Of a stretch of 64,000 nt of DNA, positions 10,726 through 63,693 are shown one piece after another. Origin of the DNA: Desulfitobacterium dehalogenans ATCC 51507 (GTDB lineage: Bacteria; Bacillota; Desulfitobacteriia; Desulfitobacteriales; Desulfitobacteriaceae); the NCBI RefSeq assembly GCF_000243155.2, contig NC_018017.1, forward strand, positions 3,906,001 through 3,970,000, written 5' to 3'. Made by a program: the position numbers and the translations under genes. The notes beneath the pieces are model-generated. The model was not told the origin of the DNA. It saw only the letters and a program-made list of their open reading frames with translations, and searched no databases. Every line of letters begins with the position of its first letter. The first letter of the stretch is position 1.

Positions 10726-10970
10726 CGTAGCTTTACGCACAACGTTTACTCTATAGCTCCGGGGCTGGTCAACTCGCTTTCTTAACAGCTACGCCAAACC
10801 CCGCTGCTTTCTGTATGTGAACCGGTGGCTGCGCTACGTTAAGAAAGCTTTCGTTAACCCGACCGCCCCTCCGCTTAAAGAAAGCTTGGCTTATGGTGAG
10901 TGAAGCGAAGCAGAAGACTTAGCTGCCTTATACACAGTGAAATCCGTTCACTTTTGTGCGTAAAGCTACG
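10726..10970 (+). repeat. Module A of R1
   Basis: Closed by a perfect 17-base inverted repeat (10726-10742 with 10954-10970, core GTAGCTTTACGCACA). A second stem inside is GCTTTCTTAAC (10776-10786) with GTTAAGAAAGC (10838-10848). Just outside it, CGGGGC and GCCCC arms also pair. Confidence 0.8.
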
Positions 10971-27091: not shown

Positions 27092-27209
27092 AGTATTTTC
27101 TCCTCTCTCAATCTTGGTTGGTTTTTGGATCTTTTGGGGGCTTCATTTGGGATCTTTGCTGGGGTCGTTCTATCTCTTTATTGGGGTCACTGCTCTTTAT
27201 TTGGGTCAG
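27092..27209. repeat. Degenerate short tandem repeat upstream of fadE
   Basis: Between 27130 and 27209 the phrase TTTGGGGTC / TTTGGGTC recurs four or five times, spaced by CT-rich bases (for example CTTTATTGGGGTCACTG, CTCTTTATTTGGGTCAG). It abuts repeat R2. It may be a relic of element insertion. Confidence 0.4.
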
Positions 27210-27388
27210 GTAGCTTTTCGCACATCATTCACTCATTAGCTCCAGGGCTGGCGCTCCCGCTTTCGCAGCAACTCCGCCAAACCTCAGGGTAATACCTGAA
27301 GTGAACCATGGCTCCGCTACCGCTACGAAAGCTTTGTTCGCCTGAACGCCCTTCCGCTAAAATCGTTCATTCTTGTGCGAAAAGCTAC
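27210..27388 (+). repeat. Module A of R2
   Basis: Outer arms GTAGCTTTTCGCACA (27210-27224) and TGTGCGAAAAGCTAC (27374-27388) differ from the other copies by one A:T to T:A swap on both sides. The inner arms are GCTTTCGCAGC (27259-27269) and GCTACGAAAGC (27322-27332). The loop holds a CCTCAGG-type hairpin. Confidence 0.8.
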
Positions 27389-27496: not shown

Positions 27497-27715
27497 CCAA
27501 GGATTTTGCTTGACAGTAGAGAACGGCTTCTAAGCGAGCAGTTAACCGTTCTTCGCGAAGAGCTTACAGCGGAGTCGGGTTGGAAACAGGACGTTTCCAA
27601 CCCGCTAGAGAGCCAAGGATGGCGATTTAGCGGGGAACCCGACGGAGCTGAAAGCTTGAGCGATTAGAACGGGTACGCGCAGCTTATAGAGTGAACGGGG
27701 CAAGCAAAATCCTGG
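27497..27715 (+). repeat. Module B of R2
   Basis: Arms TTTTGCTTG (27504-27512) and CAAGCAAAA (27701-27709). Inside are CCGTTCT/AGAACGG (27546, 27666), GAGCT/AGCTT (27560, 27653), GTCGGGTT/AACCCGAC (27574, 27636) and CGCTA/TAGCG (27603, 27628). The central hairpin with loop AGGAC is unchanged from other copies. Confidence 0.8.
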
Positions 27716-36410: not shown

Positions 36411-36674
36411 GTAGCTTTACGCACAACGAACCTTCGGGCGTGAGCTCCTGAAACCCTCCACCGGAGGCTTTCTTCATCGGAGCACACGTACTCCATAGCT
36501 CCAGAGCTGGTTAACTCGCTTTCTTAACAGCATCTGCAGCGGATAAGAACCCTTTGGGGTGTGCCGCTTTGAGCGAAACTGTCCACCGGACACTTTCGTC
36601 GCCAAACCTTTGAGCAGAAAGCCTTAGCTGCCTTATACACAGTGAAAGCCGTTCCCTCTTGTGCGTAAAGCTAC
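36411..36674 (+). repeat. Module A of R3
   Basis: Outer arms GTAGCTTTACGCACAA (36411-36426) and TTGTGCGTAAAGCTAC (36659-36674). It contains an inserted palindrome with arms CGTGAGCTCC (36439-36448) and GGAGCACACG (36479-36488), and the left inner arm GCTTTCTTAAC without its partner. Confidence 0.75.
36531..36598 (-). repeat. Double-hairpin mini-element (in module A of R3)
   Basis: 68 bases; read on the minus strand it goes CGAAA-stem-TTTCG, CTCAA, AGCGG...CCGCT, GCAGATG. It replaces a 5-base loop present in R1, giving a clear insertion relative to the empty site. It is nearly identical to the copy at 63424-63491. Confidence 0.75.
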
Positions 36675-36745: not shown

Positions 36746-37045
36746 CCAAGGATTTTGCTTTAAGGCAGAGAACGGATTCTAAGCGAGCAGGTAAGCAATC
36801 TTCGCGAAAAGACTGCAGCGGAGTCGGGTTGGAAACAGGACGTTTCCAACCGGCTATGAGAACAAGTGCGAAAGCAGTGCTTTCGAGGAGCCGATTTAGC
36901 CACGAAACCCGGGCGAGGGTTTCGCCCAAGCCGCCACCCCACAGAGACTACTTAGCGGCGCAGGTGCACCCGGCGCAGCGGAGGTCTTGAGCGATTAGAT
37001 TGCTCCGCACAGCTTATAGAGTGAACGCCGAAAGCAAAATCCTGG
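36746..37045 (+). repeat. Module B of R3
   Basis: Outer arms CCAAGGATTTTGCTTT (36746-36761) and AAAGCAAAATCCTGG (37031-37045). It is 63 bases longer than B of R1, the difference being one mini-element between the GGCTA/TAGCC hairpin and the CCCG right arm. Confidence 0.8.
36903..36966 (+). repeat. Double-hairpin mini-element (in module B of R3)
   Basis: 64 bases: CGAAACCC/GGGTTTCG hairpin, CCCAA, GCCGC...GCGGC hairpin, GCAGGTG. It is absent at the same place in R1 and R2, and present in R4. Confidence 0.75.
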
Positions 37046-54827: not shown

Positions 54828-54864
54828 ACGCCTGTCCTTAAGTTTCTAACTTAAGGACAGGCGT
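54828..54864 (-). terminator. T-box-controlled terminator
   Basis: The stem has 17-base perfect arms (ACGCCTGTCCTTAAGTT side and its complement) and a 3-base loop, followed by TTTTT. It lies between the T-box sequence and trpX and is the off switch of the riboswitch. Confidence 0.9.
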
Positions 54865-55085
54865 ATAAACCTGCGGTACCACCTTAATTGATGCATGAAA
54901 TAAACCATACATCCTCTCTTGCAGGGTGCCATCACACCCTTAGCCCAGTAACGCTGGCTATGCGTCGTAAGCTACTCATTGCTTTTCGCTCCGCCCTCAG
55001 GGGCCCATTTACTCGCTCCGTTACCTGCCAGGCTTCCACCTTCCCCGGCTCTCTTTAAGGCTGGTCTTGCGGTTTTACTTCCCCA
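54828..55085 (-). promoter_or_regulatory. T-box riboswitch sensing tRNA-Trp, controlling the trpXYZ-type operon
   Basis: On the minus strand the T-box sequence AGGTGGTACCGC lies at 54873-54884, followed by the terminator. Stem I contains AGAGAGCCGG and GGTGGAAG. The specifier loop reads AAATGGGCCCCTGAG, with TGG at 55005-55007 in the codon position. TGG is tryptophan. Uncharged tRNA-Trp would stabilise the antiterminator and permit transcription. The specifier call rests on alignment with known T-box stem I layout from memory. Confidence 0.88.
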
Positions 55086-55140
55086 TCAACAGTTTAGAAC
55101 AGTTTAGCATATTATTTTCCAGGAATCAATAGAGATTTAT

Positions 55141-62895: not shown

Positions 62896-63171
62896 CCAGG
62901 ATTTTGCTTTCGGCGTTCACTCTATAAGCTGCGCGGAGCAATCTAATCGCGAAAGACCTCCGCTGCGTCGGGTGCACCTGCGCCGCTAAGTAGTCTCTGT
63001 GGGGTGGCGGCTTGGGCGAAACCCTCGCCCGGGTTTCGTGGCTAAATCGGCTCCTGCCTCATAGCCGGTTGGAAACGTCCTGTTTCCAACCCGACTCCGC
63101 TGCAATCTTTCGCGAAGATTGCTTACCTGCTCACTTAGAATCCGTTCTCTGCCTTAAAGCAAAATCCTTGG
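62896..63171 (-). repeat. Module B of R4
   Basis: Outer arms CCAGGATTTTGCTTT (62896-62910) and AAAGCAAAATCCTTGG (63156-63171). The right inner stem is CGCGAAAGA/TCTTTCGCG, replacing the imperfect pair of R1 and R3. The GGCTA/TAGCC hairpin is shortened. Confidence 0.8.
62975..63038 (-). repeat. Double-hairpin mini-element (in module B of R4)
   Basis: 64 bases, identical in length and nearly in sequence to the copy in B of R3, at the same insertion point. Confidence 0.75.
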
Positions 63172-63423
63172 GCTGTCTTTCGGGTCTGAGCAGTGCAACT
63201 CTTTCGAAAAGACCCAAAAGAAGGGCCAACAAAGACGCGCAAGCGTAGCTTTACGCACAGGAGCGAACGGCTTTCACTGTGTATAAGGCAGCTAAGGCTT
63301 CTGCTTCGCTTCACTCACCATAAGCCAAGCTTTCTTTAAGCGGAAGGGCGGCCAGGTCAACGGGGCTTTCTTAACTTAGACGAGCCACCGGTTCACCTCA
63401 GGTATTACCCGGAGGTTTGGCTC

Positions 63424-63491
63424 CGAAAGTGTCCGGTGGACAGTTTCGCTCAAAGCGGCACACCCCAGAGAGTACTTATCCGCTGCAGATG
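63424..63491 (+). repeat. Double-hairpin mini-element (first in module A of R4)
   Basis: 68 bases, matching the copy at 36531-36598 in R3. Second stem is AGCGG/CCGCT, where the other type has GCCGC/GCGGC. Confidence 0.75.
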
Positions 63492-63564
63492 CTGTTAAGA
63501 AAGCGAGTGAACCAGCCCTGGAGCTATAGAGTACGTGAGCTCCGATGAAGAAAGCCTCCGGTGA

Positions 63565-63633
63565 CGAAACCATCCAGTGAATGGTTTCGCCCAAGCCGCC
63601 CTAGCCACAAAGATGAACTAAGCGGCGCAGGTG
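63565..63633 (+). repeat. Double-hairpin mini-element (second in module A of R4)
   Basis: 69 bases with first stem CGAAACCAT/ATGGTTTCG and second stem GCCGC/GCGGC. R3 has the host palindrome without this insertion at the matching point (near 36456), giving an empty site for comparison. Confidence 0.75.
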
Positions 63634-63693
63634 GGTTTCAGGAGCTCACGCCCGAAGGTTCGTTGTGCGTAAAGCTACGCGACCCGAGCAAAT

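What the first reader, a model, noticed from the sequence alone, without database searches (positions are those of the whole stretch)
27210..27388. Compensatory change in the outer stem of module A
R1, R3 and R4 have GTAGCTTTACGCACA with TGTGCGTAAAGCTAC. R2 has GTAGCTTTTCGCACA with TGTGCGAAAAGCTAC. One base pair has swapped A:T for T:A on both arms, 150-250 bases apart. Independent paired change is strong evidence that the pairing itself is selected or that the arms are copied together.
Basis: seen in the sequence. Interest (0 to 1): 0.82.

Follow-up and report, generated by a model that had tools for sequence, protein, structure and literature searches.

The report
Scattered folded DNA/RNA hairpin family
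The stretch is one of about 60 copies, in this one bacterial genome, of a gene-less 180-base folded element found throughout its bacterial class; its folded shape on one strand is kept by evolution although the sequence changes, and it is absent from the RNA-family catalogue searched.

Summary
The base-pair swap in R2 is not in itself strong evidence: on a tree of the copies it is one old event, shared with a second copy in this genome and with copies in a sister species. A covariance model of module A finds the family in 58 of 82 genomes of the class and nothing in Rfam. Across genera the outer stem is almost wholly different in sequence yet 97.5% paired; 9 of its 14 modelled pairs covary significantly and no pair of columns outside the structure does. 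The fold is strand-specific: stem mismatches are G:U (33) rather than A:C (2), and unpaired positions show no matching mutation bias. Copies are intergenic and usually paired with a divergent relative (module B) on the opposite strand. They sit at orthologous sites in sister species, yet orthologous copies are no more alike than random copies, so cores are exchanged. One genome carries about 15 identical, recently spread copies. Best reading: a non-autonomous, MITE-like element whose single-stranded fold is selected; RNA versus ssDNA is unresolved.

The parts
27210..27388 (-). Module A, copy R2 (short 179-nt form); the folded strand is the minus strand; the outer stem is 27210-27224 with 27374-27388
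   Evidence: Exact inverted repeat; CM R1 177.9 bits on minus, 23.9 on plus
27210..27224 (-). Outer-stem arm carrying the T variant at stem position 9
27374..27388 (-). Outer-stem arm carrying the matching A variant
27500..27713 (+). Module B partner of R2: divergent member of the same family folded on the opposite strand (arms AGGATTTTGCTTG / CAAGCAAAATCCT)
   Evidence: Inverted repeat; B strand preferred in 46/46 copies; A model matches B copies on that strand, more weakly
10727..10969 (-). Module A, copy R1 (243 nt, one extra peripheral segment)
36411..36674 (-). Module A, copy R3 (264 nt, rearranged/extended interior)
36749..37043 (+). Module B partner of R3 (extent from its arms)
   Evidence: arm positions
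63245..63678 (+). Module A, copy R4 (434 nt, extra interior segments), opposite orientation to R1-R3
62898..63168 (-). Module B partner of R4 (extent from its arms)
   Evidence: arm positions

Best explanation
Module A is a member of a class-wide family of non-autonomous, MITE-like dispersed elements, about 180 nt without extras, with no gene. One strand folds into a long unbranched hairpin: outer stem, several internal helices, and a conserved apical motif GGUUNACNUCAGGUAUUACC...GGUUUGGC. Shown here: the fold is conserved and strand-specific; the family spread through many sites; sites persist between species while cores are exchanged among sites. Inferred: the fold is needed in a single-stranded form (a transcript or exposed ssDNA) that is recognised by an unidentified trans-acting machinery that copies or exchanges the element, and mutations that break the fold on that strand are removed. 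The R2 swap is an inherited variant of the outer stem, kept paired by this selection and/or carried as a unit when a core is exchanged.
For: Cross-genus covariation: all 45 pairs show changes on both sides, 95.5% of cells paired against 30-39% when partners are slid; 17 pairs significant, 9 of 14 in the outer helix, 0 outside; 113 paired-to-paired double events against 16 breaks in the outer helix. Strand specificity: MFE lower on one strand in 57/58 copies; outer stem G:U 33, A:C 2, loops unbiased (227 vs 264). Independent of neighbouring genes: G:U/A:C is 18/1 where both flanking genes run with the element and 17/2 where both run against it. Spread: about 60 copies here, 58/82 genomes. Mobility: about 15 cores with identical score in G041, nine checked identical over the core with the same short ends at unrelated sites; carried inside a multicopy DDE-transposase IS in G050; in the ileS leader present in G035 and not seen in the 20 other readable relatives. 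Persistence with exchange: 23 orthologous sites; stem arms 95.8% identical, adjacent intergenic DNA 64-76%; orthologous cores rank 1 to 35 of 35 in similarity.
Against: No mobilising protein was found. No transcript data were available. Precise insertion ends or a target-site duplication were not established. Persistence at orthologous sites with stems more conserved than coding DNA is also what a host-useful element would show. The CM alignment was fitted to the structure, and the covariation null is home-made.
Confidence: 0.55

Rival explanations
1. A host-beneficial multicopy structured RNA (trans-acting ncRNA or mRNA-embedded element), kept at each site by selection for a cellular function and only secondarily scattered.
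For: Strand-specific G:U-tolerant fold; stems at orthologous sites more conserved than coding flanks; conserved apical motif across genera; R2 lies between a thiolase and an acyl-CoA dehydrogenase gene that run with the folded strand.
Against: No orientation preference relative to neighbouring genes (++38, --37). No shared promoter-like sequence seen by eye upstream of copies. The ileS-leader copy is seen in only one of 21 readable Desulfosporosinus-type genomes. Orthologous cores are not preserved as individuals.
Confidence: 0.25
2. An ssDNA-hairpin element mobilised by a Y1 (IS200/IS605, RAYT-like) transposase, i.e. an oversized REP-like sequence.
For: ssDNA hairpins would also tolerate G:T on one strand; an adjacent small hairpin (GTGCYGC...GCRGCAT) follows the core in several genera; GTAG at the 5' end of Desulfitobacterium copies; Y1 genes exist in 6 of 12 tested genomes including G041.
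Against: Element-rich genomes G002, G006, G017, G050, G074 and G077 have no Y1 gene. No element was found next to the Y1 genes examined. The 5' GTAG is not conserved in other genera. No leading/lagging bias under an assumed origin at 0 (about 20 of 40).
Confidence: 0.12
3. Concerted evolution alone: arms stay complementary through gene conversion or template switching at the DNA level, without selection on a folded strand.
For: Cores are exchanged between sites, and both arms can be replaced together.
Against: Arm correction would not prefer G:U over A:C on one strand, would not conserve internal helices with covariation, and copies with one-sided changes exist in numbers but nearly all as G:U.
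Confidence: 0.05
4. A stand-alone bridge RNA of IS110-type recombinases (about 177-nt RNA with internal loops), supplied in trans.
For: Length and internal loops resemble the IS621 bridge RNA (PMC11208160); IS110-type transposases occur in 7 of 12 genomes.
Against: None found in G041, where the element has recently multiplied, nor in G001, G013, G058, G074; cores lack an adjacent recombinase gene.
Confidence: 0.03

Closest known systems
Bacillus cereus group repeats bcr1-bcr3 (MITE-like) and bcr10/bcr18 (predicted structured RNAs), as described in PMC3446304
   Same: Short intergenic, gene-less, multi-copy repeats; predicted RNA secondary structure; MITE-like behaviour; about half transcribed as parts of UTRs or operons
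   Different: The family here spans a class with whole-helix covariation, occurs as opposed pairs of relatives, and shows exchange of cores among persistent sites; whether bcr elements do this was not checked here
ERIC, YPAL, BIME and other stem-loop repeat families surveyed in 40 genomes (PMC2267715)
   Same: Intergenic, structured, tens of copies
   Different: That survey does not mention Desulfitobacterium; 67 of its 92 models are 31-200 bp and most predicted structures are simple stem-loops, whereas this fold is a 45-pair rod with peripheral domains
GTAG-tagged REPs with RAYT transposases (PMC3733652)
   Same: Palindromic intergenic repeat beginning with GTAG in this genus
   Different: 180 nt rather than 20-40; the tag is not conserved across genera; no RAYT association found
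IS110 bridge RNA (PMC11208160)
   Same: About 177-nt RNA with internal loops
   Different: No recombinase gene in the element; several host genomes lack IS110-type transposases
TwoAYGGAY RNA (Rfam RF01731)
   Same: Sub-threshold match (34.7 bits, cutoff 43) of part of module B
   Different: Below the gathering score, only model positions 45-113 of 168, and not module A

Membership tests
MITE / non-autonomous mobile repeat | No gene, many dispersed copies | tested here: met
   About 60 copies, 94-434 nt, no coding capacity
MITE / non-autonomous mobile repeat | Terminal inverted repeats | tested here: met
   Arms complementary in almost all copies; whether they are the transposition ends is not shown
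MITE / non-autonomous mobile repeat | Identical copies at unrelated sites; presence/absence between relatives | tested here: met
   G041 copies; ileS site present in G035 and not seen in 20 others
MITE / non-autonomous mobile repeat | Target-site duplication and autonomous partner sharing the ends | tested here: inconclusive
   Flanks lie in short repeats (GACCC here, CTGACTC heptads in G041); no partner found
Known Rfam RNA family | Covariance-model match above gathering score | tested here: not met
REP/RAYT | Conserved GTAG tag plus a linked Y1 transposase | tested here: not met
IS110 bridge RNA | Encoded in the end of an IS110 element with its recombinase | tested here: not met
   Core-carrying loci lack one; G041 genome lacks the transposase family
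Structured functional RNA | Statistically significant covariation on one strand | tested here: met
Structured functional RNA | Transcription of the folded strand | not testable with these tools
   No expression data held

The most novel reading that the evidence does not exclude
A previously uncatalogued class of mobile structured RNA: paired, oppositely oriented relatives that copy or exchange themselves among fixed chromosomal sites through a folded RNA (or ssDNA) intermediate using host-encoded machinery, evolving in concert across whole genomes of one bacterial class.
Probability: 0.25. Interest if true: 0.85.

Novelty: new variant of a known kind. Interest (0 to 1): 0.62.

Why it matters
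This is a large, deeply conserved family of folded elements: up to tens of copies per genome in most Desulfitobacterium- and Desulfosporosinus-type genomes tested, absent from Rfam and not found in the papers searched. It combines whole-helix covariation on one strand with identical recently spread copies and with core exchange at persistent sites. That makes a testable system for how gene-less elements persist and spread in bacteria, and for whether a single-stranded fold is what they are selected for. It also offers ready probes for RNA-seq in organohalide-respiring bacteria.

Tried and rejected
(1) Taking the R2 swap alone as proof: rejected, one event and not significant within the genus. 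(2) Strand mutation bias as the cause of the G:U excess: rejected, unpaired positions show no such bias. (3) Read-through transcripts as the selected form: not supported, the bias is equal when flanking genes run the other way. (4) REP/RAYT: Y1 genes missing in element-rich genomes and not linked to elements. (5) IS110 bridge RNA in trans: transposase family missing in G041 and others. (6) Rfam at permissive thresholds: only unrelated weak hits. (7) Papers: nothing on this repeat in Desulfitobacterium or Desulfosporosinus. (8) Viral contigs: no match to the apical motif. (10) A pseudoknot between the apical GGUUCAC and GUGAAC segments was seen by eye but not tested for covariation and is not claimed.

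Full report
What was checked. The arms and the A:T/T:A difference are exactly as described, except that the R4 arms are about 404 nt apart. The window lies at 3906001-3970000 of a closed 4,321,753-base chromosome that carries 103 exact arms, about 60 module-A copies.

How informative the R2 change is. The T:A pair at stem position 9 also occurs at 3272327-3272505 in the same genome and in three of the five G002 copies first extracted. On a tree built without the outer stem it is one event covering these copies. R2 and the 3272327 copy are orthologous to G002 copies L087 and L081, with the same genes on both sides. A covariation test restricted to the 58 short Desulfitobacterium copies does not make this pair significant. 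The single swap is therefore weak evidence by itself.

The decisive test. A covariance model (R1, 179 positions, 45 pairs) built from 58 copies found the family in 52 of 73 genomes of the order and 58 of 82 of the class, 19 of 27 genera. In the cross-genus alignment, 14 of 14 modelled outer-helix pairs change on both sides while 97.5% of cells stay paired; sliding the partners drops the whole structure from 95.5% to 30-39%. A phylogeny-aware null on 57 sequences, with reverse-strand shadows and B copies removed, gives 17 significant pairs, 9 of them in the outer helix, and none outside the structure; the outer helix shows 113 paired-to-paired double events against 16 breaks. Caveats: the alignment was fitted to the model, and the null is a home-made parsimony version of R-scape.

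Which strand. On the minus strand of R2, and the equivalent strand of every other copy, the consensus fold is more stable (-114 against -107) and single-copy folds are lower in 57 of 58. Departures from Watson-Crick in the outer stem are G:U 33 times and A:C twice. At unpaired positions the changes that would make G:U (A>G, C>T) are not in excess (227 against 264). The bias is the same whether neighbouring genes run with or against the element (18/1 and 17/2), so read-through transcripts are not obviously what is selected. Both RNA and single-stranded DNA fit this pattern.

Anatomy. Short copies are 177-180 nt; longer ones carry extra interior segments. In most Desulfitobacterium copies (46 of 61 here, 27 of 36 in G001) a second palindromic module, B, lies upstream at a median of 160 nt. 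B folds better on the opposite strand in 46 of 46 copies, and the A model matches it there with E-values down to 4e-8. Because the reverse strand of A itself scores about as high by palindromy, the B homology claim rests mainly on the stronger opposed pairs in Desulfosporosinus-type loci (84 and 87 bits) and the conserved arrangement.

Mobility and persistence. G041 has about 15 cores with the same score; nine were compared and are identical over the core, with the same short ends and different surroundings. A second G041 group has the core inverted relative to those ends. In G050 the core lies within five near-identical copies of a 2-kb insertion sequence with a DDE transposase. The ileS leader of G035 carries a copy; none was seen in the upstream 330 bases of the 20 other readable Desulfosporosinus-type genomes. 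Between G000 and its sisters, 23 sites are orthologous. There the stem arms are 95.8% identical, the element 80%, adjacent intergenic DNA 64-76% and a flanking gene sample 82%. Yet the orthologous core ranks anywhere from 1st to 35th of 35 in similarity. Sites persist while their contents are exchanged.

Mechanism. The best reading is a non-autonomous MITE-like element whose folded single strand is recognised by an unidentified trans-acting factor. Conservation of the fold, its strand specificity, spread and exchange are shown; the intermediate and the factor are inferred. No tested transposase family explains it: Y1 and IS110-type genes are missing from several element-rich genomes, and no elements were found next to the Y1 genes examined.

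Known or new. There is no Rfam match and no paper found. The kind is known (bcr1-type and ERIC-type structured repeats: PMC3446304, PMC2267715). The class-wide covariation, opposed pairing and core exchange make it a distinct variant.

Noticed in passing
window 54850-55098 (-): T-box leader above the Rfam gathering score.
   Followed up: no
window 27577-27640 (+): Part of module B gives a sub-threshold match to TwoAYGGAY RNA (34.7 bits, cutoff 43) and has two hairpin loops with AGGA, the type of motif bound by CsrA/RsmA (from general knowledge).
   Followed up: no
L182:2943-5110: An insertion sequence with a DDE transposase in G050 carries a module-A core antisense between its left end and the transposase gene; near-identical copies at five places.
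   Followed up: partly
G041 loci L171-L181, L195-L216: Elements in Paradesulfitobacterium-type G041 sit among CTGACTC-like heptad repeats; some copies are reduced to the basal hairpin (L208) and others have extra inserted hairpins.
   Followed up: partly
alignment A1 columns 95-112: Two alternative apical-loop types (CAGGTATTACCC and TGCAG-AAAGCAGCGG) are both found in several species and genera, as if swapped as a unit.
   Followed up: no
G007:C15:68673-69201 and 75971-76488: Module-A copies in close tandem pairs on one strand.
   Followed up: no
window 27140-27209 and other copies: GACCC (GGGTC) motifs recur several times on both sides of Desulfitobacterium copies; origin unexplained.
   Followed up: no
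L124:1158-1199 (G006): A mini-palindrome made of the two module-A arms with only a 12-nt loop, in a different genus, suggesting internal deletion.
   Followed up: no
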